The translations under genes and the position numbers were made by a program. A stretch of 64,000 nt of DNA from NCBI RefSeq assembly GCF_000226095.1, contig NC_016472.1, positions 6,262,001-6,326,000 of the forward strand, given 5' to 3'. The DNA comes from Thermothelomyces thermophilus ATCC 42464 (taxonomy: Eukaryota > Ascomycota > Sordariomycetes > Sordariales > Chaetomiaceae). Of this stretch, positions 1 through 56,208 are shown piece by piece; the stretch's first letter is position 1, and each line of letters opens with the position of its first letter. Below the pieces are notes generated by a model. It was not told the origin of the DNA, searched no databases, and saw only the letters and a list, made by a program, of their open reading frames with translations.

Positions 1-804
1 TATAACTTATAAAAGAAAGAAGAACTACATCCTGTCACTCTAATCTATTAGAGTAGACAAGTGTTAAAAAGCTATCTGTTGTCCTTGTCTATCTATCTGG
101 TGCCCTTAGATAGGCAACCCCTATTTATGCCTATCGTATATAGTAAAGCTCTACGGAACTAGAAAAACAAAACTATACCCTATATCCCTCTAGTTATATT
201 AAGAACTTCTAGCCCTAATCTATACTTCCCCTTTGAATTCGCCCTAAGGCTCTTGCTAGCGAATTTGGACCTAAAACCTTACTTACGTTCCTTACGATGC
301 CTAGCCTACTTGGCTTTACTATTTTCTTTAAGTAAGGGCTATTTCTTAGACGCCTAATGCCTTTACTAGGCTTTTACTTTGGTATCTAGCATATCCTAGC
401 CTATAAACTATAGCGGGTACTTAGGAACTAGCTTAAGATCTTTAGGCCCTAAGCGTTCGAATAGTAGGGGTCGAGTCTATTTGGCAGGATCATCGTCAGG
501 ACGACGCTAACGAGCCTGTCCTTTCTTAGCGGCTCGGGTCGAGCGTATCTCCTGTATCTATGCCGGCTTACTCAGCTTTGTCTTGGTCTAACTAGGCGGC
601 CGTCATATTACCAAAGGTACCTACTTGACTAGTTGCTACTACTATAACCCTAAAGACTTTCCTTATCCTTCTATAGCTATGAGTTACTCCTTTACCTGTT
701 TTACTATACGCTAGTAAATAGCTATCCTTGGTTTACAGGGATACTTAAGCGCCTATTAAAGTAGCTAAGGTAGCCTAAGTCCCTTAGGCGCCTTACTAAG
801 GAAC
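1..804. other. RIP-mutated repeat DNA, family not recognised
   Basis: AT-rich, TpA-rich sequence with the same mutational look as the neighbouring retrotransposons. On the minus strand, roughly 230-640, one frame is interrupted only by TAG/TAA stops, as expected of a RIP-killed coding region, but I recognise no domain. It ends where the first LTR begins at 805. Confidence 0.5.
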
Positions 805-1685
805 TGTCACGGATAAGCACATGGACAGCCCGGCAGGCTGCAGCTAGGACACAGGACATTCCGACAGCCAATCACTTAACAGACCAATTAGAAGACTATC
901 ACTGCCAAGACTAAGGTCTTCACTAGTAATAATAACATGTCACCGTCAACAATACAGAATTACAGAATAAAAGAAGAAATGGTACTAGTAATAACTATTA
1001 AAGAGGGACAGATAATTATATATTGTGACGAACCCAACTCAGACTGCTTCTGAAAGGGTCCAGACGGAGGTGGGTTAAGCGGGACAAGCAGGCAGGTCGT
1101 CTGAGGGATTCGGTGAAGCCAAAGGGTTCACAACAACACTTAGAGTTGTCTCTCACAGTAATCAGCAATGCTTGGTATGAGTACTGTGATTGTGATTGTT
1201 ACCACTGGTGAACTCCCAGAGTCCACCATAACGAGTGACTATTTACATGTATATATACTCCTAGGATCACTAGCAGTCGTGGTGATCATTCATACTGGCT
1301 CACCTGGCTCATATCGTGAGCCAGTGATCCTCTGTTGGGATCATTTCTTGCCAAGCGTGATCCCGTCCTGATTGGTCCATCATTCCTTCGGCTTGATTGG
1401 CCCGTTCGTGCCAGTGGCTCAGGCGGCATCTGCATGCATATTTCCGTGACATATATATATAGCTAGCTAGTCACTCGTTATAGTAAACTCTAGGAGTTTA
1501 CTAGTAATAGTAACCTACAATTATAGCACTTATACCAAGTATTGCTAACTATTATAAGAGATAACTCTAGTATTATTATAAACCCTTTGACTTTACCAAA
1601 TCCCTTAGACGACCTATACACTTGCCTTGCTTAATTTACCTCCATCTAAACCCTTTTAGAGGAAGTCTGAGTTAGGTTCGTTATA
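805..1685 (+). repeat. 5' LTR of element A (type 2 U3), split by a solo LTR
   Basis: Begins TGTCACGG and ends CGTTATA, a RIP form of CGTCACA. The two parts, 805-1023 and 1457-1685, give about 448 bp once the insertion and duplicated TATAT are removed, matching the 447-bp LTR at 28679-29125. Confidence 0.8.
1024..1451 (-). repeat. Solo LTR of the element C family inside the LTR of element A
   Basis: 428 bp, the same length as both LTRs of element C and closely similar to them in reverse orientation. It begins TGTGACGAAC and ends CCGTGACA. It is flanked by a perfect 5-bp duplication, TATAT (1019-1023 and 1452-1456). Much less RIP-mutated than its surroundings, so a later insertion followed by LTR-LTR recombination. 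Confidence 0.9.
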
Positions 1686-1712
1686 CGTTGCTATTACTCC
1701 CTTTATTCTATT

Positions 1713-3974
1713 ATAGCTCAGAACAGAGGTAATTTCGACCTTGACATCGATATAGCTACTAACGTCACGGCCGAATAGCTGCTTACCTAGCTTAGTTAAT
1801 TCTAGCAGCAGATCTAGGAGTTAGACTAGAGAGATAAGATTACTTAAGCTCGGATTAAGGAACTCGAGAACGGTGAAAAGCACTTATAGAAGCTAGTTAA
1901 TAAGGCCTACGCCAAAATCAAGGCACTCGAAGGCGCCAAAGCGAGCCGTATTAAGATCGAACTACCTGGTAAATATAGAGGAACTAAGGAGGATCTTGTA
2001 AGATTCCTAATAAACCTCCGATCCTACTTTTGGCTTAATGACGATAAGTTTCTAGATAATAAAGCTAAAGTCCTTTATATAGCTATAAGACTAGAAGGTA
2101 AGGTACTTAGATAGTTCGAGCCTATATAGAATGATTATCTTATTAAGGAAGACGAAGATAACCAAGATATATTTATATAAGTAATCTTTTGATCTTATAA
2201 CCGTTTTAAAGAAGAGCTTTAGAAGGTTTTTAGCGATAAAGATAAGAAGATTTATACGTAAGAAAGACTTACTAATCTCCGATGGACTAAGTTAGTAGCC
2301 TCTTATACTATATAGTTTAGATAGGATATATTTAAGTCTTAGCTTAACGATAAGGTATTAATATAACTATTCTATAATAGCTTAAAAGAAAAGGTTAAAG
2401 ATAAACTATATAAGTACGACTAGCCTAAGACCTTAGATAAATATATTATATAGGCTATTAGAATTAATAATCGACTCTATATATAAGAGTAGTAGAAACA
2501 AGGTTAGATAAACAGAACTACGGTCAAGGCTAATAATAAGAAAAAACGAATATACATTAGCACATTGCATAGGACATATCCTGGAGCTATAGATATAGAT
2601 ATAATATAGAAGTAAGACTAAAAGAAGATAACTAAAGATAAGTCCTATATTACCTACTATAACTATAGAAAGAAAGGGTACTATAAGCGAGAATGTCAAA
2701 GCCTAAAGAAAGACTAGAAACTAGTCCCTAGAAAGGAAATTACGGCTATTAACGAAACCGTTAAAGATATTATCGAAGTAGCGGCTACAAGCTATAAGAA
2801 TAGGAACAGCGACACGGATAGTCTCGGATACGACGGCAATAGTAAAGACGAACAAGCACCGTACTCCGAACTAGTTATAATAGACCTAGAGACAGGTCTT
2901 GCCAAATGGAACATAGTAGGAGAGTATACACTACCAATTTCGATTCTCCTAGCCCTAAGGTAGTAGGGTTTTATAGTTACCTAGAGGTAGGATAGATTAT
3001 AGACGACCGATACCTAAGGAATTAAAAGACCCGGACCTAATGTTCTATTCCTCTAGGAACGAATCAAATGGTACTATAACGAAGTTTTCCGGCTTAATAC
3101 GGAACTATACGAACGGGATAGACGCTTGATTTGACTTGCCTAGTAGAGCGATGAGATAAGGGACGAGATAAGGGAACTCTGACGTATTATAGAAACCATT
3201 AGAGGAGAACGGTCTATAATATACGATAGGCCTAATAGCTATGCTAAGTATTTTAATAATTAGCAACTTAGCTATAATATATAGAACCTAGAGTACTAGT
3301 TTATATATGTAAACTATAGAAAAGATAAACGTATATAGGAAAACTACTAGAAGAAACACTCCTACCTTAGCATTAGAGTACCTATAGTATATATATGGTA
3401 GGAAGGATTTAGAAAAGAATTCTAATACTTTCTAGGCAACGCTATACGACTATACCTATAATATAAGGCATATATACAAGTGCCCTAGTTCTAGTATATA
3501 TTATACGAATATCGATACCACTTTTACGACAAATTCGAAAATAATTACTAGCTAACCTAATAAGAAAATAAGGATAGAAGCCTCTACCCTATAGAATAGG
3601 TCTATAATATAGGAAACAGAGCGGCCGAATTGCTCTAGAAAATCGAAGCCCGCGATCTAGAAAGCATTATAGTAGTTCTAAAACGAGTTTAGCCTAGGTA
3701 CTATAGAACAGGACGAGATATATAGGACTTGTGCCGAAATAACGACTGCCTCTACCACGCGGACAAAAAGAAATCGCAGATCTAGGAACTTTAGATAAAG
3801 CTATAGTATATATGACAGAAAGTAAAACGGACCTAATAGTAAGAAGCTACTAGCACTTAATAGCTTATAGAAATAAGTACAATCGACAAAGCTACTATTA
3901 GCTAAATAACTAAAGAAGTTAGTACTAACCTAGGAAACGGGTCAGGGCCCTTCGAGGGGCCCGAAAACCATTAA
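1713..3974 (+). pseudogene. gag of element A, RIP-inactivated
   Basis: The span is exactly 2,262 nt, the same as gag in elements B, C and D, and ends at the same TAA. The start codon has become ATA, and many in-frame TAG/TAA codons replace Gln or Trp codons. By alignment with element C it contains a retrotransposon gag region, a CCHC zinc knuckle with Cys-to-Tyr changes (about 2660-2700), and a long extension with a charged coiled-coil-like stretch and a C-x4-C-x2-H motif (about 3730-3760). The hairpin GGGCCC-TTCGAG-GGGCCC (3945-3962) lies just before the stop. No functional product is possible. Confidence 0.8.
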
Positions 3975-6900
3975 CGCCCGTATAACGGCGAGTAGTAGCG
4001 TAGTATAGGAGGAACTAGCGTAAGAGACCACTATATCGAGACCTCTTAGCAAAAACATAGGAAATCGCCGTAATCTTTAGACGACGGCGGCAAGATAAGC
4101 GACTATAGATAATAGTACAATAGAGATAGCACGAAATGCTTATACTAGTAGATAGTGGAGCAGAGATAAACCTAATTTTGCCAATACTTGTAAATTAGCT
4201 ATAGATACCCTAGAAAATAAAGCGGAAGTATAGTATAATTAAAGGGCTATTTCCGATGTAATAGGTATATAAGGAGACTAAACCGATCGACATTACTATA
4301 GTAGGAAAGACTATAGTAGTCGTATTTAGCATTATAGACATAGGTAATGATAAAGATATAATATTAAGGTTACTATAGTATGAAGATTATAACCTAGACA
4401 TTAGCTAGAAGAATAGTAGCTACCTATGACCCTAAATAGAGTCGTATTTGACTAGCAAGATAGGGAGCATATAAGGATCGCGAGCAGACGATACTCAGGG
4501 GAAGGCATATCTTACGGATCTACCGTAAGAGATAGACAGTAGTAGGTAGACTACTATAGACTCTAGAAGAAGTAGTATAATGACACTAATATTACAATAG
4601 GAGGAACGAGCTAAACTGCCGATAGCTATTCTCTCTATTAACGAATATAGAGCACTATAAATAGAGTAATAGGTTAAGATAGGAGAAATCGCTAATATTG
4701 CTATAGACGAAACCAAGTTCGTATATTATTAGAAAGCCGAGAGACAAGACAAGACTAGAGAAGTACCGAAGAAATACAAAGGATACCTAGCATTCGAACT
4801 AAAGCATCTAGAAGGGTTACTAGAGCACGGCCTATAGGATTACGAGATCAAGCTTAAGGAAGGAGCATGACTAAAGTCCTTTAAGATTTATTATACGAGC
4901 TAGACATAGAATAAAGAACTTAAGTAATACTTAGAGGAGAATCTTTAAAGAGGATATATCTACCTGTTAACATTACTAGTAGGCTACCTAATCCTATTTA
5001 TACTTAAGAAAGATAGAAAGCTATAGTTATACGTTAACTATTAGTAACTTAACGAATAGATCGTAAAAAACTAATACCTATTACTACTAATCTTATAGCT
5101 CTAAGATTAGTTAGTAAGAGCCTAATATTTTACACGTCTTGACTTACTATTAGCCTATAACTATATATAGATTAAAGAAGGCGACGAGTGGAAAACGGCC
5201 TTTAGAATACCCTATAGCCATTACAAGTACCTTGTTATGCTATTTAGACTTATAAATACGCTAGCAACGTTCTAAGCCCTAATTAATTAAGCTATCTAAT
5301 TCTTTCTTAATGAATTTACAGTATATTATCTTAATAATATACTTATCTTCTCTAAAACGATAGACAAATACCAAAAGTCGTAAGAGTAGTACTAGATGTA
5401 TTATACGCGTACAAGCTATTAATCAATAAGGAAAAGAGCAAATTCTACGTTAGGAAGATAGTGTTTTTAGAATATAAAATATCCCTAGGACAAATCCAGA
5501 TAGAACCTTTAAAGGTCGAAGCTATTAAGGATTAGCTATGACCGATGTCAGTTACAGAAGTATAAAGTTTTATTAGGTTTACGAACTTCTACTAGATATT
5601 TATTAGGAACTTTAGAGCGATTATATGACCTTTATACGAACTTACTAAGAAGAACACTAAATTCCAATAGAAAGAGTAACACAAGTAAGCATTTATATAG
5701 ATTCGCGACGCCATTACTAAAGATCTAGTACTAGTACTACTAGACCCTAAGAAGCTATTTAAGGTGGAAACGGACGCTTCAGACTATGCTATCAGAGGAT
5801 AGTTAGAATAATGAGACGAACAAGGGAAGCTATATCCTATAGCCTTCTTTTTAAAGAAGCTCGACAGACTATATCTTAATTATCTAATCTATAATAAGGA
5901 ACTACTTACGATTATCGAAGCTTTCAAGGAATAGCGACTATACCTTAGTAGTACGATTAAACTAGTATAAATATATACGGATTATAAGAATTTATAATAC
6001 TTTACGATGACGAAGGAGCTTAATAGACGACAAATATAATAGGTAGAATTCCTTATAGAATTTAATTTTGAGATCTGCTATAAGAAGGGTAAAGAGAATA
6101 TATAAGTAGACGCCTTAAGCCGACGAATAGATTATATAGAAGGACGAACGGAAATAACGCCACCGTTATTTAAGGAACGAATAGATAGAACGCTATATCA
6201 CGAAACGTAGATACCTATAGAAGATAACCTACTCGACTCGTTCCTGGAATATTACGTAATCTTTCGAGAAGAAAGGATTAATAAAGTATAGTATTAAGCA
6301 ATACCTAGACTAGTGGTACCTAACGGAGTAGAAGAAAAAGATAGGAAACTCTGGTACCAAGGCAAAGCGTATATCTACGATAAAGATCAATAGCTATAAA
6401 TGATTTAAGGACTTTACAAGTCAAAACTTAGAGGATATAAAGGAGTTACGAAGACTATTATATAAGTCAAAAAACACTACGATTTTCTATACTTAATAAT
6501 ACGAGTCAAGGAAGTTATATAGAGCTATGATATCTATAATCGAAGCAAAACGGCATAATACAAGCTATATAGGCTACTTTAGCTACTATTAATAGCTAAC
6601 AAACTATAGAGTTTAGTTATAATAGACTTTATTACGAAACTACTAGAATCTAAGGATATAGCTATAGGGGTAATCTATAATAGTATTCTTACTATAATAG
6701 ACTGCCTAACTAAATAGGTATACTTCTTTCCCTATAAGGGGTCCTAGATAGCAGAACAGCTAGTAGACGTAATCTATTAGCAAGTCGTATTAGTATACGC
6801 TTGGCTATAAGAATAGATCACTAACAGAGATACTAAGTTTGTATCGAAGTTCTAGCAAGCGTTAATACAACGATTAGGCGTTAATAGCAAGCTATTAACG

Positions 6901-7966
6901 GCATATTACCTACAAACCAACAGACAAACGGAGCGACTAAACCAAGTTATCGAGTAGTACCTCCGTTCTTACGTTAACTACTAGTAGGATGACTAGGTCA
7001 TGCTATTACTAATAGTATAACTCGCTTATAATATAACGCTAACAGAAATGACTAAAGTTATATCGTTCTTCGCAAACTATAGATATAAAGTAGATCTTAG
7101 GCAAGGATTAGAGGTTATAGTGCCGAGAGTAGCAGTCAAAGTAAAACAAATGTATATACTATACGAGAAGCTTAAAAAGGAACTTAAGTTTGTTAGAACT
7201 AGAATAAAGAACTATTATGACAAATATAGGCTTAAGAGACCTTACCTAGAGAGGGGAGACAAAGTTTACCTAATTATATAAAACTTATAAACTAAATGAC
7301 TAAGTACAAAGCTAGACTTTAAAAAGGTTAGACCCTTTATTATTAAAGAACGAATCTTAATATCTAACTATCGACTATTATTACTGTCATCTATATAACT
7401 ATAGACAGATATTTTTTATATTTCACTTCTTAAACTAGTACTAAAGAATGCTAAGGTTACTATATACATCGAAGCAGAGGACGAAGAGGAAGAATAGGAC
7501 GTTAAAGAAATCCTAGATTTATATATTATTAATAAAGAACTATAGTACCTAGTTAAATAGCTTGATTTTAGACTAGAAGATAACTTATAGAAACTAGTTA
7601 AGAACCTAAGTTGCCCTAAGAAATTAGAGTAGTTCTACTAGTAGAATCCTAACCAGCTATAAGAACCGGTTCTAAAGCCTATTCCCTAATAGAAAAAGAA
7701 AAGAACCTACTAGAATTAGGACTAGGATCTAACCTAATTAACTCCTAATCGAGTATATCAAAAGCACCTAACGCCTAAGCCTAACCCGCGAGGGTCTACG
7801 TCTCCGATATCGGCAGAGGAGTATCTAGTTCTTCCTCCTCCTCTAGACAAGCTATACCACGACGAAAAACCTTGGTACTACGATCGTATAGGGATTGCTA
7901 CAAACGACGTAATCGACTTAAACGGCTTAGTGTCTAAGCAAAAAGCGCCTCGGTCTTAGTAATCTC
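3947..7966 (+). pseudogene. pol of element A (PR-RT-RH-IN-chromodomain), RIP-inactivated
   Basis: It starts in the -1 frame relative to gag. An aspartic protease segment lies at about 4133-4170 (D-S-G-A), then reverse transcriptase, RNase H, integrase with a GPF module near 7330, and a chromodomain from 7498. The RT active site reads Y-L-N-N instead of Y-L-D-D, as RIP of GAC codons predicts. Compared with element C, one base is missing near 5376, shifting the frame downstream. There are dozens of TAG/TAA stops. After the chromodomain the frame continues to about 7966 over the antisense gene, and this tail is also found in element D. Confidence 0.8.
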
Positions 7967-8305
7967 TTTTAAAACCTTCTCTTGCTCTAACAAATTTAAA
8001 AGGACTAAGATAGTTAATAACCTAGGACTACGAAGGAAAATAATAAGGAACCTATAGGTATCTGTAACATTTAGGCTACTATATTTCTTACCTATATAAA
8101 TATGGTTTTAATACTTATTTAAACCTTCTATTATTATATAACACTTTTATAGCTTTGTATTCTAATAACGCTTATAAGGTATAGCGACCTTGTAACCCTC
8201 TCGCTTAATCTTAATCGTAATAACGTATTATTTATGCTTAAGATTACAACAGTTCCTAGGAATACAATTAGCTATAGCAGAAGGAAGCTAGTAGAAAAAG
8301 GACGT
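7616..8305 (-). pseudogene. Antisense spliced gene of element A, Cys-cluster plus coiled coil, RIP-inactivated
   Basis: It lies opposite the end of pol and runs away from the 3' LTR. At 690 nt it has the same length as the copy in element D. The ATG has become ACG (8303-8305) and the stop is at 7616-7618. Exon 1 holds a Cys-rich cluster with some Cys codons now TAT; the third position is still TGT here but TAT in D, which shows the Cys ancestry. A 51-nt phase-1 intron can be aligned with D, its donor GT mutated to AT. Exon 2 resembles a charged coiled coil. Function unknown; see the intact-frame discussion under elements B and C. Confidence 0.65.
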
Positions 8306-8360
8306 TACCTATAGGGAAAGAAAAGGGGGTATTAATAGTCTTTAAAACAAGTTATAAGAA

Positions 8361-8390
8361 GCTTTCAGGTCGAAAGCCCTAAAGAGGGGG
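8361..8390 (+). other. Stem-loop and polypurine tract before the 3' LTR of element A
   Basis: GCTTTC (8361-8366) pairs with GAAAGC (8372-8377) around a 5-nt loop, followed by the purine run AAAGAGGGGG (8381-8390), 5 nt short of the LTR. The purine run is the expected plus-strand primer. The stem-loop recurs at the same place in elements B, C and D. Confidence 0.65.
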
Positions 8391-8395
8391 CATCG

Positions 8396-8853
8396 TATCA
8401 CAAGCTAACCATATACCGCGACCTAGTAGGGCATAGCAGGCTAAATGAGCCACCAATCAAGAAGGGCACGAAGCGAGGCTAATATAGGATCGCTAGGGAG
8501 CGTAGGCTACTATGGGCGAACAATTACCAAAAGGGAAAGATAGCGGAGGATAGCTAGCTACTAAAGGCGATCTAAGGATAGGATAGAAGGAGACTATAAG
8601 CAATTAGTAGAAGTATATATATATATAAATAGTTACTCGTTAAGGTAGACTCTAGGAGTTTACTAGTGATAGCAACCTAACCTATAATTACAAGTATATA
8701 TACCAAGTATTACTGACTATTGTAGGAGATGACTCTAGTGTTGTTATAAACCCTTTAGCTTTACCGAATCCCTTAGACGACCTATATACTTGTCCCGCTA
8801 AATTTACCTCTGTCTAAACCCTTTTAGAAGAAGTCTGAGTTAGGTTTGTTACA
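8396..8853 (+). repeat. 3' LTR of element A (type 3 U3)
   Basis: 458 bp, exactly as long as both LTRs of element D and with the same U3. It begins TATCACAAG (RIP form of TGTCAC) and ends GTTTGTTACA. Confidence 0.8.
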
Positions 8854-10770
8854 TTATAACTCCTTTATATCCTCCGAGTTTTGACTTATAGAGGTCTTAA
8901 ATCATTCATAGCTATTAGTCCCTGTTGTAGATATATGCTTTACCTTGGTACTAGAGTTTCCTATCTCTTTTTTCCACTCCGTTAGGTACTACTAGTCTAG
9001 GTACTACTTGATACTATATCTTGTTAATTCTTTCTTCTCAAAAGATTACGTAATATTCTAGGAACGAGTTAAGTAGATTATTTTCTATAGGTATCTACGT
9101 TTTGTAATATAGCGTTCTATCTGTTTGTTCCTTAAATAATAGTAGTATTATTTCCGTTTATCCTTCTATATAATCCGTTTATTAGCTTAAGATGTCCACT
9201 TATACATTCTCTTTGCCCTTCTTATAGCAGATCTTGAAGTTATATTCCACGAGGAATTCTACCTATTATATTTGTCGTCCGTTAAGCTCCTTTGTCGTTA
9301 TAAAGTATCGTAAATTCTTATAGTCTGTATATACTTATACCAGTTTAATTATACCGCTAAGGTATAGTCGCTATTCTTTAAAAGCTTTGACAATCATAAG
9401 TAGTTCCTTATTATAGATCAGATAATTAAGATATAGTCTATTGAGCTTCTTTAAAAAGAAGGCTATAGGATATAGCTTTCTTTGTTCGTCTCGTTATCCT
9501 AATTATCCTCTAATAGCGTAGTCTAAAGTATCCGTTTCTACCTTAAATGGCTTCTTAGGATTTGGTAATACTAGTACTAGATCTTTAGTAATAGTATCGT
9601 AGATCTATATAAATGCTTGCTCGTACTGTTCTTTCCATTAGAATTTAGCGTTCTTCTTTATAAGTTTGTACAAAGGTCGTACGATTGCTCTAAAGTTCCT
9701 GATAAACATTCGGTAGAAGTTTACAAATCTAATAAAGCTTTATACTTCCGTAACTAACGTCAGTCGTAGCCAATTCTTAATAGCTTTAACCTTTAAAGGT
9801 TCTATCCGAATTTATCTTAGGGATATTTCATATCCTAAAAATACCGTTTTCCTAATATAGAATTCGCTCTTTTCTTTATTAACTAATAGTTTATACGTAT
9901 ATAGCGTGTCTAGCACTGCTTTTACGCACTTCTAGTGTTTATCTATTGTCTTAGAGAAGATAAGTATATTATCGAGATAATATACCGTAAATTTGTCAAG
10001 AAAGGGTTAGATAGCTTAATTAATCAGGGCTTAGAACGTTACTAGCGCGTTTATAAGTCCGAATAGTATAACGAGGTATTTATAGTAGCTATAGAGTGTC
10101 CTAAAGGCCATTTTCCACTTATTACCTTCTTTAATCTATATATAGTTATAGGCCGATAGTAAGTCAAGACGCGTAAAATATTAGGCTCTTACTAACTAAT
10201 CTTAGAGCTATAAGATTAGCGGTAATAGGTATTAGTTTTTTATAGTCTGTTTGTTAAGTTACTAATAGTTAATATATAACTATAGCTTTCTATCTTTCTT
10301 AGGTATAAATAGGATTAAGTAGCTTACTAGTAATATCAATAGGCAAATATATCCTCTTCGAAGGTTCTCCTTTAAATATCGCTTAAGTTCTTCGTTCCAA
10401 GTCTAGCTTATATAATAGATCTTAAAGAACTTCAGGCATGCTCCTTCCTTAAGCTTGATCTTGTGATGCTATAGGCCGTATTCTAGTAGTCCTTCTAGAT
10501 ATTTCGGTTCGAATGCTAGGTATCCTTCGTATTCCTTTAGTACTTCCCTAGTCTTGTCTCATCTCTCGGTTTTCTAATAGTATATAAACTTAGTTCCGTC
10601 TATAGCGATACTAGCGATTTCTCCTATCTCAACCTACTACTCTAATTACAGTGCTCCGCATTTGTTAACAGAGAGAATAGCTATTAGCGGTTCGGCTCGT
10701 TCTTCCTATTACGATATCAATATTGTTATACCACCTCTTCTAGAGTCTGTAGTAGTCTGTCTACTACTGT
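8854..10770 (-). pseudogene. RT and RNase H part of pol, element E
   Basis: Minus-strand homologue of 23.4-25.3 kb in element C. The RT active site near 9,975 reads Y-L-D-N, one aspartate lost by RIP. The fragment begins (right side) in the protease-RT spacer at the element B insertion and ends (left side) at the start of the integrase, cut at 8854. Many TAG/TAA stops; no product. Confidence 0.75.
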
Positions 10771-11188
10771 TGTGACGAACCTAACTCAGACTTCTTCTAA
10801 AAGGGTCCAGACGGAGGCAGGCTGAGCGTGACGAGCAGGCGGGTCGTCTAAGGGATTCGGTGAAGCCAAAGGGTTCACAACAACACTAGAGTTGTCTCTC
10901 ATAGTAATTAGCAATGCTTGGTATAAGTACTGTGATTATGATTATTACTACTGGTAAACTCCTAGAGTCCTCTATAACGAGTGACTATCTACATGTATAT
11001 ATAATCCTAGTGATCACTCCTGATCACGGTGATCGTGAGTGATCGCATGGTGGTGATCACCCTGATCGCTGGTGAGCGTAGTGATCACTGTACTTCCTAT
11101 GTTGTAATTGGTCCTTCCGTTCCTTCGGCTTGATTGGCCCGTTTGTGCCGGTGGCCTAGGCAGCATCTGTATACATATTTCCGTGACA
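10771..11188 (-). repeat. 3' LTR of element B
   Basis: 418 bp, TGTGACGAAC to CCGTGACA in plus-strand reading. U3 (11010-11088) carries seven GATC tetramers, mostly within GTGATC or TGATCAC. Next to it lies the polypurine tract, read on the minus strand. Confidence 0.9.
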
Positions 11189-11320
11189 CGCGATGCCCTC
11201 CCTCCGAGGCTTTCGACCCGAAAGCCCTCTTTTTAGGCCGTCTCAAATAGCGCTAACATCCCTCGCGTTCCTTATACGTGTTTTTCTCCTTAGTCCTCGT
11301 TGCCCTTCGTGCTGTTAATC

Positions 11321-11913
11321 ATGCCGTCTAATGTATATAGATCCCTAGTGTCTATTTATCGTGAGCGTTTGGCTTAGTTTATTTCCGATCATAGGTTCGT
11401 AGTGATAGCGTATTCCTATTACACAGAGTATAACCAAGTGTATAAGATGATTGAAAAATCTCGTTACTACGAGGCTTACATGCGTTAGGGTCGTGCTTAC
11501 AATGGTTCCGGCGTTCTAGTTTCTTCTTGTAAGTTCCTATTTTCTTGCGAGGGCACGTCTCTGATCGTAACACAGTAGATCGTATCATACGCGAGCAACG
11601 TCGTTTGAAGGCTGAAGAGAAAGAGGCCGAAGCCTTGCTACGAGAATATTAATATAAAGCTTCTAAGGCGTTGGCCTGTCTGACTCGGGTTCGTGAACAA
11701 CGAGAGTTCCTGGTAGAGAAGGGGGCAGACATGGTTATATAGGGTTTGTCAGATCTAGACAAATTAGAGGCGGTAGAATAGCAGGAATTAGGGGCCGTTG
11801 TGTAACTTAACGGTGGCATTAACGTTATTAACTAGGGCGCTGTTTTCGGTTCTGTCCTAGGTTTGCCTTTAGCCGATCCAGGTTCTGCCGATAGAACTAT
11901 TCTAGTTTCTTAG
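11321..11913 (+). pseudogene. Antisense spliced gene of element B: Zn2Cys6-spaced cluster plus coiled coil, RIP-inactivated
   Basis: Exon 1 is 11321-11528 and exon 2 is 11576-11913. The 47-nt intron has a perfect GTAAGT donor, a CTGAT/GTAAC branch region and a CACAG acceptor, and splicing joins the two open frames in phase 1. ATG start and TAG stop are intact; seven internal TAG/TAA codons come from RIP. Codons 31-59 hold six Tyr codons spaced x2, x6, x8, x2, x6, exactly the Zn(II)2Cys6 pattern if each TAY was once TGY, which is what RIP would do. Exon 2 reads as a Glu/Lys/Arg/Leu-rich coiled coil. The 3' end overlaps the end of pol tail to tail. A DNA-binding regulatory role is inference only. 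Confidence 0.7.
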
Positions 11914-14900
11914 GGTAGTTCAAATTCTTAACTAGTTCCTATAAGTTATCTTCTAGTCCGAAATCAAGCCATTTGACTAAGTACTATAGTTCCCTATTAA
12001 TAATACGTGAATCTAGAATTTCTTTGACGTCCTATTCTTCCTCTTTGTCCTCTGCTTTGATGTGCGTAGTAACCTTGACGTTCTTTGGTGCTGGTTCGAG
12101 AAGTGAAATATGAAAAACATCTATCTGTAGTCGTATAGATGACGGTAACGATAGTCGATAGTTGGATATTAAAATTCGTTCCTTGATAATAAAGGGTCTG
12201 ACCTTCTTAAAGTCTAGCTTTGTGCTTGGTCGTTTGGTTCGCAAGTTTTATATAATTAGATAGACTTTGTCTCCCCTCTCTAGGCAAGGTCCTTCGAGCC
12301 TATGTTTGTCGTAGTAGTTCTTTATTCTGGTTTTGATAACTCGAGTTCCTTCTTGAGCTTCTCGTATAGTACGTACATCTGTTCTACTTTGGCTGCTGCT
12401 CTTGGCACTGTGACCTCTAGTCCTTGCCTAAGGTCTGCTTTATATCTGTAGTTTGCGAAGAACGGTATAACTTTAGTCGTTTCCATTAGCGTCGTGTTGT
12501 AAGCGAGTTATACTATTGGCAATAGTATGACCTAGTTATCTTGCTAGTAGTTAACGTAAGAGTGGAGGTATTGCTTAATAACTTGGTTTAGTCGCTCCGT
12601 TTGTCTGTTAGTCTATAGGTAATATGCCGTTAATAGCTTGCTATTGACGCTTAATCGTTATATTAATGCTTGCCAGAACTTCGATACGAACTTCGTGTCT
12701 CTATCGGTAATCTATTCTTGCGGCTAAGCATGTACTAATATAACTTGCCGATAGATTATGTCTACTAACTGTTCCGCTGTCTAGGACTCTTTATAGGGAA
12801 AGAAGTATGCCTACTTGGTCAGGCAATCTACTATAGTAAGAATACTGTTATAGGTTACTCCTATAGCTATATCCTTAGATTCTAACAGCTTTGTAATAAA
12901 GTCTATCGTAACTAAACTCTATAGTTTGTCAGCTATTAGCAGTAGCTAAAGTAGTCTATACGGCTTATATCGTGCCGTTTTGCTTCGATTGTAGATGTCG
13001 TAGTTCTATACGACTTCCTTAATCTGTACCGTTAACTATAGAAAGTCGTAGTGTCTCTTGACTTGTACAACAGTCTTTATAGCTCCTTTATATCCTCCGA
13101 GTTTTGATTTATAGAGTTCTCGAATCATTTGCAGCTATTGATCTTTATTATAGATATACACTTTGCCTCGGTACTAGAGTTTTCTATCTTTTTCTTTTAC
13201 TCCGTTAGGTACTACTAGTCCGGGTGCTACTTGATACTATACCTCGTTAATCCTTTCCTCTCGAAAGATTACGTAGCATTCTAGGAACAAGTCAAGTAGA
13301 TTATCTTCCACAGGTGTCTACGTTTCGTAGTACAATGTCCTGTCTGTTCGTTCCTTGAACAACAGTAGTATTATTCCCGTTTGTCCTTTCGTATGATCCG
13401 TTCGTTGGCTTAAAATGTCTGCTTGTACGTTTTCTTTGCCCTTCTTGTAGCGGATCTCGAAGTTAAATTCTGTAAGGAATTCTGCCTATTGTATTTGTTA
13501 TCTGTTAAGTTCCTTTGTTGTTGTAAAGTATCGTAAATTCTTGTGATCTATATATACTTATACTAGTTTAATCGTGCTACTAAGGTATGGTCGCCATTCC
13601 TTGAAAGCTTTGATAATCGCAAGTAGTTCCTTATCGTAAATCGGATAATTGAGACATAGTCTATTGAGCTTCTTTGAAAAGAAGGCTATAGGATATAGCT
13701 TCCCTTGTTTGTCTCGTTATCCCAATTGTCCTCTAATAGCGTAGTCTGAAGCGTCTGTTTCTACCTTAAATGGCTTCTTAGGGTCTAGTAGTACTAGTAC
13801 TAGATCTTTAGTAATGGCATTACAGATCTATATAAATGCTTACTCGTGTCGCTCTTCCTATTGGAATTTAGCGTTCTTCTTAGTAAGTTCGTATAAAGGT
13901 TATACGATTGCTTTAAAGTTCCTAATAAACATTTGGTAGAAGTTCGTAAATCCGATAAAGCTTTATACTTCTGTAACTGACGTCGGTCGTAGCTAATTCT
14001 TGATAGCTTTAACCTTTGAAGGTTCTATCCGGATTTGTCTTAGGGATATTTCGTATCCCAAAAAGACTATCTTCCTAATATGGAATTCGCTCTTTTCCTT
14101 GTTAACTAATAGTTTATACGCGTATAGCACGTCTAGTACTACTATTACGTACTTCTAGTATTCGTCTATCGTCTTAGAGAAGATAAGTATATCGTCGAGA
14201 TAATATACCGTAAATTTATCGAGAAAGGGTCGGATAGCTTGATCAATCAAGGCTTAGAACGTTGCCAGCGCGTTCGTAAGTCCGAATGGCATAACAAGGT
14301 ACTTATAGTGGCTATAAGGTATCCTAAAGGCCGTTTTCTACTCGTCGCCTTCTTTGATCTATATATAATTATAGGCTAATGGCAAGTCAAGACATGTAAA
14401 ATATTAGGCTCCTGCCAACTAATCTCGGAGCTGTAAGATTAGTGGTAACGGGTATTGGTTTTTCACGGTCTGTTCGTTAAGTTGCCGATAGTTGATATAT
14501 AACCGTAGCTTTCCGTCTTTCTTAAGTATAAACAGGATTAGGTAGCCTGCTGGCAATATCGACAGGCGGATATATCCTCTTCAAAGGTTCTCCTCTAAAT
14601 ATCGCTTAAGTTCTTCGTTCTATATCTGGCTCGTATAGTAAATCTTAAAGAACTTTAGTCGTACTCCTTCCTTAAGCTTAATCTCGTAATCCTATAGGCC
14701 GTGTTCTGGTAATCCTTCTAGATACTTTGGTTCGAATGCTAGGTGTCCTTCGTATTCTTTCGGTACTTCCTTAGTCTTATCTCGTCTCTTAGTTTTCTAA
14801 TAATATACGAACTTGGTTCTGTCTATAGCGATATTAGCGATTTCTCCTATCTTAACCTACTACTCTAATTACAGTACTCTACATTCGTCAACGGAGAGAA

Positions 14901-17843: not shown

Positions 17844-18261
17844 TGTGACAAACCTAACTCAGACTTCTTCTGAAAGGGTCTAGACAGAGGCAGGCTGAGC
17901 GTGACGAGCAGGCGGGTCGTCTAAGGGATTCGGTAAAGCCAAAGGGTTCATAACAACACTAGAGTTGTCTCTTATAGTAATTAGCAATGCTTAGTATAAG
18001 TACTATGATTGTAATTGTTACCACTGGTAAACTCCTAGAGTCCTCTATAACGAGTGACTATCTATATGTATATATAATCCTAGTGATTACTCCTGATCAC
18101 GGTGATCGTGAGTGATCGTATGGTGGTGATCACCCTAATTGCTGGTGAGCGTAGTGATCATTGTACTTCCTATGTTGTAATTGGTCCTTCCGTTCCTTCG
18201 GCTTGATTGGCCCGTTTGTGCCGGTGGCCTAGGCGGCATCTGCATGTATATTTCCGTGATA
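17844..18261 (-). repeat. 5' LTR of element B
   Basis: 418 bp, the same length as its partner at 10771-11188, differing mainly by transitions. It ends GTGATA, a RIP form of GTGACA, followed by the ACTGT duplication. Confidence 0.9.
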
Positions 18262-25700: not shown

Positions 25701-26557
25701 ACCCGCAGACCGACGGACAAACGGAGCGACTAAACCAAGTTATTAAACAGTACCTCCGCTCTTACATCAACTACTAATAAGACGACTAGGTCATGCTGTT
25801 ACTAATAGCACAACTCGCCTATAATACGACGCCGACAGAAACGACCAAAGTTACACCGTTCTTCGCAAACTATAGATATAAAGCAGACCTTAGGCAAGGA
25901 CTAGAGGTTACAGTGCCAAGAGCAGTAGTCAAAGCAGAACAGATGCACGCACTACACGAAAAGCTCAAAAAGGAACTCGAGTTTGTCAAGACTAGAATGA
26001 AGAACTACTACGACAAACATAGGCTCAAGGGACCTCGCCTAGAGAGGGGAGACAAAGTCTACCTGATTACACGAAACTTACGAACCAAACGACCAAGCAC
26101 GAAGCTAGACTTTAAGAAGGTCGGACCCTTCGTTATCAAAGAACGAATTTCGACATCTAACTACCGACTATTGTTACCGTCATCTATACGACTATAGACG
26201 GATGTTTTTCATATTTCACTTCTCGAACCAGCACCAAAGAACGCCAAGGTTGCTACGTACATCGAAGCAGAGGACAAAGAAGAAGAATAGGACGTCGAAG
26301 AAATTCTAGATTTATACATCATTAATAGGGAACTATAGTACCTGGTCAAATGGCTTGATTTTGGACCAGAAGACAACTCATAGGAACTAGTTAAGAACTT
26401 GAACTACCCTAAGAAACTGGAACAGTTCCACCGGCAGAACCCGGATCGACCGCAGGCACTGGCTCGGACAAAACGGCCAAGTCGGCCTCCGACAAATCCA
26501 GGCCCAAAGAGGACCAGTCAAACAGGACGTCAGCACCCCAGGACCGTACATCACTAA
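22739..26557 (+). pseudogene. pol of element C (PR-RT-RH-IN-chromodomain)
   Basis: One frame, -1 relative to gag, runs the whole length with only RIP-type stops. Aspartic protease motif D-S-G-A at 22943-22954. Reverse transcriptase about 23.7-24.4 kb with intact Y-L-D-D at 24119-24130. RNase H to about 24.95 kb. Integrase about 25.2-26.2 kb, with the catalytic Asp, Asp and Glu region near 25.42, 25.62 and 25.72 kb and a G-P-F module near 26.12 kb. A chromodomain at 26291-26440 marks it as a chromovirus. The open stretch 23924-24604 is the longest intact piece. The product would be a polyprotein for cDNA synthesis and integration; premature stops abolish it. Confidence 0.9.
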
Positions 26558-27051
26558 TAACGCGTGCTTCGGACTCCTACACCCTCCGTTCTTCCGCCTC
26601 TATTTCCTCCAGAGACTGCATGCCTCGACGAAACAGCTCGGAACCCCGCTCCTTCAAGAAACGTTTCTGGCGACAAAGACAAGCTAATCGACCGACAGCC
26701 GCCTGAAGTTAAGTCTGAAGGACAAAGAGGGCCTCTTCGGCATTAGCCTCTTCTTGTTCCACACGCTTTTGTTCGGACATAATCTTCGTTACTATAAAGA
26801 ATCAGCCACGAACATTAAGGCAACAAACCAGGTCACAAACAAGCAGACGCTACGTCGGAACCATCGCAAGAACGACCCCGACGTACGTACTTGCTACAGC
26901 GAGAAGAGCCTGACGCCATACGACAAGCCAAGTTCCGCTTAAAATACCACGAACACGGTATGACGTCTACGCTAGAAGAATCAATAAAAGAAGCAAGCGC
27001 GGCACGCTGTTAGGATTTCGAGGATCGGCGCTTAGAAACACGATCTGCCAT
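26409..27051 (-). pseudogene. Antisense spliced gene of element C: Zn2Cys6-spaced cluster plus coiled coil
   Basis: Exon 1 is 27051-26841 and exon 2 is 26791-26409 on the minus strand, together 198 codons with ATG and TAG intact. The 49-nt intron (GTTTGT donor, GCTGATTC branch, TATAG acceptor) sits at the same phase-1 position as in element B, and the flanking residues align. Residues 33-62 show Cys-x2-Tyr-x6-Cys-x8-Cys-x2-Tyr-x6-Cys, the Zn(II)2Cys6 spacing with two Cys lost by RIP; C-D-G follows as the last Cys context. Exon 2 is Glu/Arg/Leu-rich, coiled-coil-like. Only three internal stops (two TAA, one TAG). It overlaps the chromodomain end of pol by about 150 bp, tail to tail. Confidence 0.75.
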
Positions 27052-30876: not shown

Positions 30877-31566
30877 ATGTCCTTTTTTTGCTAGCTTCCT
30901 TCCGCTATAGCTAATCGTGTTCCTAGGAACTATCGCGATCTTAAGCGCGAACGATATACTATTATAATTAAGATTAAGCGAGAGGGTTATAGGGTTACTA
31001 TACCTTGTAAGCATTATTAGAATATAAAGCTATAAAAGTATTATATAATAATAGAGGGTTTAAATAAGTATTAGAACTATATTTATATAGGCAAGAAGTA
31101 TAGTAGCCTAAACGTTATAGATACCTATAGGTTCCTTATTATTTTTCTTTATAGTCCTAGGTTACTAACTATCTTAGTCCTTTTAAATTTGTCGGAGTAG
31201 GAGAAGGTTTTAAAAGAGATTACTAAGACCAAGGCGCTTCTTGCTTAGATACTAAGCCGTTTAAGTCGATTATATCGTTTATAGCAATTCTTATATGATC
31301 GTAATACCGAGGTTTTTCGTCGTAGCGTAGCTCGTCTAGAGGAGGAAGAAGAACCAGATACTCCTCTACCGATATTAGAGATATAGACCCTCGCAGGTTA
31401 GGCTTAGGCATTAGGTGCTTTTGACGTACTTGATTAGGAGTCAATTAGGTTAGATCCTAGTCTTAATTCCAGCAGGTTCCCCTCTTTTTTTATTAGGGAA
31501 TAGGCTTTAAAGCCGGTTCTTATAGCCGGTTAGAATTCTACTAGTAGAATTGCTCTAGTTTCTTAG
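30877..31566 (+). pseudogene. Antisense spliced gene of element D, Cys-cluster plus coiled coil, RIP-inactivated
   Basis: Exon 1 is 30877-31126 and exon 2 is 31178-31566, 213 codons with an intact ATG and the family's Val-Ser-stop end. The 51-nt intron has its donor mutated (ATAGGT for GTAGGT) but keeps TTACTAAC and TTAG, and lies in phase 1 after the Cys cluster as in B and C. The cluster (codons 44-75) differs slightly in spacing: first gap x2, second x7, third x9, then x2 and x6; the fifth ligand is His in element A and Tyr here. Exon 2 is a long Glu/Leu/Arg-rich coiled-coil-like region. About a dozen RIP stops. Confidence 0.6.
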
Positions 31567-50497: not shown

Positions 50498-50752
50498 TGT
50501 TACAGGATTTGACTGTCTGTGGGTCAGATCTGGCTGACCCACCAACAGGGATGACGAGCCAGGGTCAACGTGTATTTAGATAGCTTCTCTGAGTGCCTCT
50601 GGCACTTAGAACAATCAACGCTTTTATCACCTACTTCTGCAGACCGTAACAGTTGGTCCAGGAGTGCCGCCCACGGCGCGAATACCGCTGTGGTGTCGTA
50701 CTTGTTTGCAGCCTCCCAGAGCTGTACTGATTGCAGCCACCGAGCTGTAGCA
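50498..50752 (+). repeat. Solo LTR, 255 bp
   Basis: Starts TGTTACAGG and ends TGTAGCA, with perfect 5-bp duplication GAGTT (50493-50497 and 50753-50757). About 90% identical by eye to 55952-56208 in reverse orientation. Not RIP-degraded. A palindrome GTGGGTCA/TGACCCAC lies at its left end. Confidence 0.88.
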
Positions 50753-55951: not shown

Positions 55952-56208
55952 TGCTACAGCTCGGTGGCTGCAAGTCAGCACAGCTCAGAAAAGGCTGCAA
56001 TAATACGACAGCACAGCGGTATTCGCGCCGTGGGCGGCACTTCTGGACCAACTGGTACGGTCTGCAGAAGTAGGTGATAAAAGCGTTGATTGTTCCAAGT
56101 GCCAGAGGCACTTGGAGATGCTGTCTAAATACATGTCAACACCCTGGCTTGTCATCCCTGTTGGTGGGTCAGCCAGATCTGACCCACTGGCAGTCAAATC
56201 CTGTAACA
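55952..56208 (-). repeat. Solo LTR, 257 bp, inverted relative to the first
   Basis: Same family as 50498-50752, reverse orientation. Perfect duplication CTACG (55947-55951 and 56209-56213). No internal retrotransposon sequence of this family is in the window. Confidence 0.88.

What the first reader, a model, noticed from the sequence alone, without database searches (positions are those of the whole stretch)
11321..11913. Antisense, spliced Zn2Cys6-like gene carried by the Gypsy retrotransposon (best read in element B)
Seen: opposite pol there are two open frames joined by a 47-nt intron with GTAAGT, branch-like sequence and CACAG, in phase. Codons 31-59 have Tyr at six positions spaced x2-x6-x8-x2-x6. 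Element C has the same spacing with four Cys and two Tyr. Known: Zn(II)2Cys6 domains have C-x2-C-x6-C-x5-12-C-x2-C-x6-8-C and often precede a coiled coil, as here; RIP turns TGY into TAY. Inference: the ancestral element carried its own fungal-type zinc-cluster protein on the opposite strand, perhaps to regulate the element or host chromatin.
Basis: partly seen in the sequence, partly recalled or inferred. Interest (0 to 1): 0.88.

Follow-up and report, generated by a model that had tools for sequence, protein, structure and literature searches.

The report
Antisense zinc-cluster-like gene in fungal retrotransposon
A fungal jumping gene carries, on the strand opposite to its own main genes, a small spliced gene for a protein with a conserved six-cysteine cluster; the gene is real and related to one already named in grey mould (brtn), but what it does is still unknown.

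Summary
In element B the + strand, opposite to gag-pol, carries ATG 11321, a 47-nt intron (11529-11575) and exon 2 to 11931. Six Tyr codons align with six Cys in homologues. This copy is not open: it has eight in-frame stops. It lies mainly between pol and the 3' LTR.
The genome is probably Thermothelomyces thermophilus (contig lengths). It holds 18 copies that after splicing encode one identical 196-aa six-Cys protein; none can be read unspliced. Three of three elements fetched also have open gag and pol and LTRs 99.6-100% identical. In 60 of 60 copies tested, pol lies antisense downstream and an LTR upstream. Of 118 homologues collected, 85 hold the six-Cys spacing.
One homologue is named 'Putative BRTN' (Botrytis), the antisense gene of Boty-like elements: a new member of a known kind. 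Pfam's Zn2Cys6 model was matched only below its cut-off wherever a score was shown, so it is Zn2Cys6-like, not a proven member. DNA binding and self-regulation are inference; expression and function were not tested.

The parts
11321..11528 (+). Element B, antisense gene, exon 1 (ATG at 11321), with Tyr codons at the six Cys positions; two in-frame stops
11529..11575 (+). Element B, intron, 47 nt, GTAAGT...CACAG, phase 1
   Evidence: same site in element C and in 18 stop-free copies
11576..11931 (+). Element B, exon 2 (Glu/Arg-rich, probably coiled coil) to the family's stop at 11929-11931; six further in-frame stops
   Evidence: profile match i-E 1.2e-20
10771..11186 (-). 3' LTR of element B (pol on the - strand), 135 nt upstream of the antisense ATG
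   Evidence: repeat pair 10771-11186 / 17844-18259, 94%
26841..27051 (-). Element C, antisense gene, exon 1, four Cys and two Tyr
   Evidence: profile i-E 5.1e-25
26792..26840 (-). Element C, intron, 49 nt, same place and phase as in B
26391..26791 (-). Element C, exon 2 with the family's stop
   Evidence: profile i-E 2e-30
7736..7978 (-). Element A, diverged exon 2 remnant, antisense to pol
   Evidence: profile i-E 9.3e-8
31201..31449 (+). Element D, diverged exon 2 remnant, antisense to pol
   Evidence: profile i-E 2.8e-6

Best explanation
Shown: the feature is a RIP-decayed copy of a genuine accessory gene of Ty3/Gypsy elements with a chromodomain, homologous to brtn of Boty-like elements. 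It sits antisense between pol and the 3' LTR, has one intron, and in stop-free copies encodes a 196-aa protein with a six-cysteine cluster followed by a Glu/Arg-rich, probably coiled-coil segment. Inferred: the antisense transcript starts in or near the 3' LTR. Its intron can be spliced only from that transcript, so it survives reverse transcription of the sense genomic RNA. The protein dimerises through the coiled coil and uses the zinc-cluster-like head to bind nucleic acid in the nucleus, most likely controlling the element's own expression or insertion. My odds: about 0.97 that the gene is real and BRTN-related, about 0.4 for a DNA-binding regulatory role; the figure below is for the whole.
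For: Homologues with six Cys in several genera; 85 of 118 collected hold the spacing. 18 own-genome copies encode one identical protein after splicing, and 0 of 18 can be read unspliced. Three of three elements fetched have open gag and pol and LTRs 99.6-100% identical (domains). 60 of 60 loci tested have pol antisense downstream and an LTR upstream. In two other species the annotated protein runs into antisense pol chromodomain sequence. Constraint on the frame between the intact copy and window B (39 synonymous codon changes against 20.3 expected; third-position excess in a codon-blind alignment). Homology to Putative BRTN.
Against: No expression data. Pfam Zn_clus stays below its cut-off in every score shown; the own-genome search with that family at E 0.001 listed 88 places and none of the nine stop-free exon 1 places that one search lists. 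No fungal zinc cluster among 32 PDB matches. Cys-fixed shuffles beat the profile comparison once in 100. CGG pairs are not enriched in the LTR. Against window C the codon-blind test shows no third-position excess (p 0.20 and 0.30).
Confidence: 0.6

Rival explanations
1. The antisense RNA, not the protein, is the working part: it pairs with the genomic RNA and feeds small-RNA silencing or copy-number control, and the frame is secondary.
For: Antisense RNAs as silencing triggers are discussed for such genes (PMC7264820 passages). The gene overlaps the pol end by about 125 nt.
Against: Protein-level constraint, six invariant Cys columns in alignments of 23 and 13 chosen homologues, and one identical protein in 18 copies whose introns vary in length.
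Confidence: 0.17
2. A host zinc-cluster gene was caught once, by transduction, and is carried as a passenger without a role for the element.
For: The six-Cys spacing is typical of fungal regulators; the captured-gene route is known for LTR elements (PMC7264820 passages).
Against: 60 of 60 copies tested carry it at the same place; relatives in many genera, two of them with the same pol neighbour; constraint.
Confidence: 0.12
3. A nucleic-acid chaperone, capsid or integration partner protein, not a transcription regulator: the six Cys act like a zinc knuckle or bind the integrase or chromatin.
For: Weak resemblance to true Zn2Cys6 and no CGG sites in the LTR.
Against: gag already has a CCHC knuckle over its cut-off; separate antisense expression would suit a regulator better than a structural part (inference).
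Confidence: 0.08
4. Chance: six Tyr and splice-like signals in AT-rich RIP-mutated DNA.
For: Window B alone is broken by eight stops.
Against: Homology, stop-free copies and linkage; pattern once against 0.025 expected.
Confidence: 0.01

Closest known systems
brtn / BRTN of Boty-like Ty3/Gypsy elements of Botrytis cinerea (Zhao et al. 2011, paper not held; title seen in reference lists)
   Same: Homologous protein (E 6.9e-35 by profile, 6e-14 pairwise), six Cys in the same order, antisense between pol and 3' LTR (PMC7264820 section 5), element with CHROMO domain (PMC4227169 passages).
   Different: Only 25% identity; a different class of fungi; here with an intron, 18 stop-free copies and RIPped ones. 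Whether brtn has an intron or was called a zinc cluster I could not check.
Antisense additional ORFs of plant Gypsy elements (Grande gene23, RIRE2, Retand TRP28, PvRetro13)
   Same: Same place and orientation; one is nuclear, TRP28 is predicted to bind DNA (PMC7264820 and PMC11963269 passages).
   Different: Other protein domains (TRP28, SMC); no six-Cys cluster is mentioned in the passages seen.
Fungal Zn(II)2Cys6 regulators (Gal4 type)
   Same: Cys spacing and a following coiled coil.
   Different: Below Pfam's cut-off in every score shown; the loop between the second and third Cys lacks the usual run of basic residues; encoded antisense in a mobile element.
HBZ of HTLV-1 (works like, not a member)
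   Same: Antisense gene at the 3' end of a retroelement, nuclear protein (PMC11963269 passages); spliced, with DNA-binding and coiled-coil parts (recalled).
   Different: bZIP, not a Cys cluster (recalled); no sign of common descent; the fungal protein's function is unknown.

Membership tests
BRTN family | Sequence homology to BRTN | tested here: met
   Putative BRTN at E 6.9e-35 with profile A5; BLASTP 6e-14, 25% identity, with P0008
BRTN family | Antisense position between pol and 3' LTR of a Ty3/Gypsy element with chromodomain | tested here: met
   60 of 60 loci; three of three elements fetched; domains of one
Zn(II)2Cys6 cluster | C-x2-C-x6-C-x5-12-C-x2-C-x6-8-C | tested here: met
   36 of 62 and, with a slightly wider pattern, 85 of 118 proteins; many of the rest are fragments or decayed copies
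Zn(II)2Cys6 cluster | Pfam PF00172 at its gathering score (21 bits) | tested here: not met
   Best score shown 15.4 bits (22 proteins). In the scan of 23 members of A3 nine matched, best E 0.0028, bits not shown
Zn(II)2Cys6 cluster | Profile similarity beyond the Cys spacing | tested here: inconclusive
   hhalign 66% probability; score reached by 0 of 100 full and 1 of 100 Cys-fixed column shuffles
Zn(II)2Cys6 cluster | Binuclear zinc fold, DNA binding | not testable with these tools
   Structure prediction switched off
Antisense additional ORF (aORF-3R) | Present in most copies, conserved, antisense between pol and 3' LTR | tested here: met
   Four of four Gypsy-like elements of the window. 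Share of all genomic copies not tested: the 60 loci were found by the gene itself
Expressed, spliced antisense gene | Antisense spliced transcript | not testable with these tools
   No RNA-seq. Indirect: same intron site in B, C and 18 copies, none readable unspliced

The most novel reading that the evidence does not exclude
Ascomycete chromoviruses have long carried their own zinc-cluster-type DNA-binding protein, made from a spliced antisense mRNA that starts in the 3' LTR, as a self-encoded switch on the element's expression or on the chromatin it sits in: a fungal counterpart, by convergence, of HBZ.
Probability: 0.3. Interest if true: 0.75.

Novelty: new member of a known kind. Interest (0 to 1): 0.45.

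Why it matters
It ties scattered 'hypothetical' and 'Zn(2)-C6 fungal-type' proteins of filamentous fungi to one named retrotransposon gene, brtn. It shows that recently moved elements keep the gene intact and that its protein frame is constrained. Annotators may otherwise count such genes as host transcription factors. With 18 identical copies beside old RIPped ones, this genome is a good place to test what antisense retroelement proteins do.

Tried and rejected
Chance ORF: rejected. Host gene caught once and carried idly: disfavoured by linkage and constraint. CGG-pair binding sites in the LTR: not enriched. LTR alignment and LTR repeats: nothing I could tie to the protein; the bacterial-type promoter scan found nothing and does not fit a fungus. 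Selection among C-type copies: all 30 fell in one cluster (all-pair transversions 56, 217, 218 by codon position, dominated by shared sites), no use made of it. B-type subfamilies: 15 of 16 loci matched (L087 did not) and differ from the intact copy by 0-3 transversions each, too few. Viral contigs: 35 pattern matches, none a relative. Plasmids: no match. PDB profile search: 32 matches, mostly coiled coils, no fungal zinc cluster. Paper searches led through the review PMC7264820 to brtn; in the listings and passages seen none calls it a zinc cluster, but the brtn paper itself is not held.

Full report
Setting. The window is C1:6262001-6326000 of a 38.74-Mb, seven-contig genome. Five contig lengths equal those behind proteins of Thermothelomyces thermophilus ATCC 42464 (lineage), so that is the likely species; no tool named it outright. 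Four Gypsy-like elements (about: A 1.45-8.9 kb, B 10.8-18.3, C 20.0-27.6, D 30.3-37.8), with other related pieces between and within them, fill most of the first 40 kb. Pol runs + in A and C, - in B and D.

Observation. On the + strand of B a gene-like structure starts at ATG 11321: exon 1 of 208 nt, intron 11529-11575, exon 2 to a stop at 11929-11931, with eight in-frame stops on the way. In C (- strand) the same gene starts at 27051 with a 49-nt intron at the same place and phase. The exact six-Tyr spacing occurs once in the first 40 kb (mean 0.025 in 40 resamplings). Each Tyr, codon TAT or TAC, aligns with a Cys in P0008 and P0017; TGY to TAY is a RIP-type step (established knowledge). A and D hold diverged exon 2 remnants in the same antisense place (i-E 9.3e-8 and 2.8e-6).

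Homologues. The C copy, X at stops, found ten proteins (2133 candidates), some with all six Cys, from Parathielavia, Canariomyces and Corynascus among others. A profile of six of them found 62, including Chaetomium globosum, Staphylotrichum, Apiospora, Verticillium, Cordyceps, Thyridium and Xylariaceae. A profile of 13 more varied ones found 94, including Fusarium oxysporum, Pseudogymnoascus, Cytospora and a Botrytis protein named 'Putative BRTN' (E 6.9e-35; pairwise 25% identity, 6e-14). Both profile searches scored only the best 8000 candidates. Of 118 proteins collected, 85 hold the six-Cys spacing in a slightly widened form, 57 exactly 2-6-8-2-6; the other 33 include fragments and decayed copies. 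The six Cys columns are invariant in alignments of 23 and 13 sequences, which I had picked for having them or for length.

Copies in the genome. P0008 gave 217 matches and the C protein 161; these count exons, the two sets may overlap, and only 150 of 985 and 150 of 907 candidates were scored. Eighteen listed copies have a stop-free exon 2. After splicing all 18 encode the same 196-aa protein; their introns are 66-80 nt with T runs of 19-33; 0 of 18 can be read unspliced into exon 2. Each has open frames of 767 (gag) and 1264 codons (pol), and LTR pairs 99.6, 99.8 and 100% identical. In the one checked, gag, zinc knuckle, RT, RNase H, integrase H2C2, Asp protease (one of three models), SH3_Tf2-1 and chromo domains pass Pfam's cut-offs; the integrase core scored 30.4 against 32.6.

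Linkage. Of the 60 loci brought in by the two searches (the best 30 of each), 60 have pol on the opposite strand downstream of the gene and 60 an LTR upstream; two (L023, L038) also have a same-strand pol match. The loci were found by the gene, so this does not say how many elements lack it. In Corynascus similis (P0007) and Staphylotrichum (P0015) the annotated protein runs on into sequence that matches the antisense of the pol chromodomain region of L069 (E 6e-9 and 2e-10 in a search of L069 and one control locus, whose best shown E for P0007 was 2.7; the output was cut before P0014 and P0050 could be seen). DNA of other fungi was not available.

Selection. Between the stop-free copy and window B, differences that RIP cannot make fall 38, 30, 64 on codon positions 1, 2, 3 (187 codons). 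Synonymous codon changes are 39 of 92 changed codons against a mean of 20.3 when the same changes are placed at random (reached in 0 of 2000), 16 against 8.3 in exon 1 (p 0.0015) and 20 against 8.7 in the exon 2 part outside pol (0 of 2000). That alignment was protein-guided. A codon-blind DNA alignment gives 39, 30, 63 (p 0.0004 for third positions) and 31, 19, 44 for transversions alone (p 0.005). Against window C the synonymous excess is weak (29 against 21.0, p 0.03), and the codon-blind alignment shows no third-position excess (p 0.20 and 0.30); at about 54% DNA identity I take that pair as saturated, which is an inference.

What the protein is. The spacing is that of Zn(II)2Cys6 clusters. 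Pfam Zn_clus (cut-off 21 bits) scored 10.8, 7.5 and 12.4 in three of ten proteins and 12.3-15.4 in six of ten others; two window reads gave no such match; of 23 members of A3 nine matched at E up to 1, best 0.0028, bits not shown. The same family searched in the own genome listed 88 places at E 0.001, none of them one of the nine stop-free exon 1 places. A profile comparison with eight true Zn clusters of this genome gives 66% probability; its score was reached in 0 of 100 full and 1 of 100 Cys-fixed column shuffles. No fungal zinc cluster is among 32 PDB matches. So: Zn2Cys6-like, possibly a far member. Exon 2 weakly matches many coiled-coil families.

Intron elsewhere. In five collected ORFs (P0011, P0012, P0013, P0017, P0118) a 15-16-residue insert sits at the intron site, as if an intron had been read through; four further regex matches in the same listing (P0029, P0031, P0054, P0065) I judge to be ordinary exon 2 sequence.

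Mechanism. Shown: position, orientation, intron site, stop-free copies, constraint, homology to BRTN. Inferred: antisense transcription from near the 3' LTR, splicing, nuclear nucleic-acid binding, self-regulation. An antisense intron is invisible to splicing of the sense RNA, so copies made from genomic RNA keep it, as the 18 copies do (inference). [quoted passage not shown] PMC11963269 passages). CGG pairs are not enriched in the LTR, so a Gal4-type target there has no support.

Known before. [quoted passage not shown] 2011) was seen in reference lists; the paper is not held. Passages of citing papers place brtn in a Boty-like element with a CHROMO domain (PMC4227169) and in BcGypsy1 (PMC8365987), and report a Monilinia transcript similar to truncated Pol and BRTN (PMC5987419). 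Whether brtn was described as a zinc cluster I cannot say. In the survey of fungal LTR elements PMC3248453 the words 'antisense' and 'zinc' do not occur in the main text.

Verdict. A perceptive reading of a ruined copy. It is a new member of the brtn kind; the six-Cys cluster across genera, the intron, the stop-free copies and the frame-level constraint are what these calls add.

Noticed in passing
L069:5326-5862 and 5863-6615 (+), likewise in L070 and L071: Two long open frames (178 and 250 codons) lie antisense to gag in the intact elements, in the same frame and parted by one stop; not tested for conservation.
   Followed up: no
L039-L056, intron of the antisense gene: A run of 19 to 33 T in the intron varies between copies that are otherwise identical in the coding part.
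   Followed up: partly
P0041, P0047, P0049, P0058, P0113, P0114: Six annotated MYCTH hypothetical proteins of T. thermophilus look like mis-modelled or decayed copies of this gene.
   Followed up: partly
P0011, P0012, P0013, P0017, P0118: Collected ORFs with a 15-16-residue insert at the intron site, as if the intron had been read through, so the intron site seems shared beyond this species.
   Followed up: partly
50498-50752 and 55952-56208: A 259-bp inverted repeat pair, 90% identical, in the gene-rich right part of the window.
   Followed up: no
L069:67-71 and 7670-7674: Five-base direct repeat TTATC flanks the LTRs of an intact element, as a target-site duplication would.
   Followed up: no
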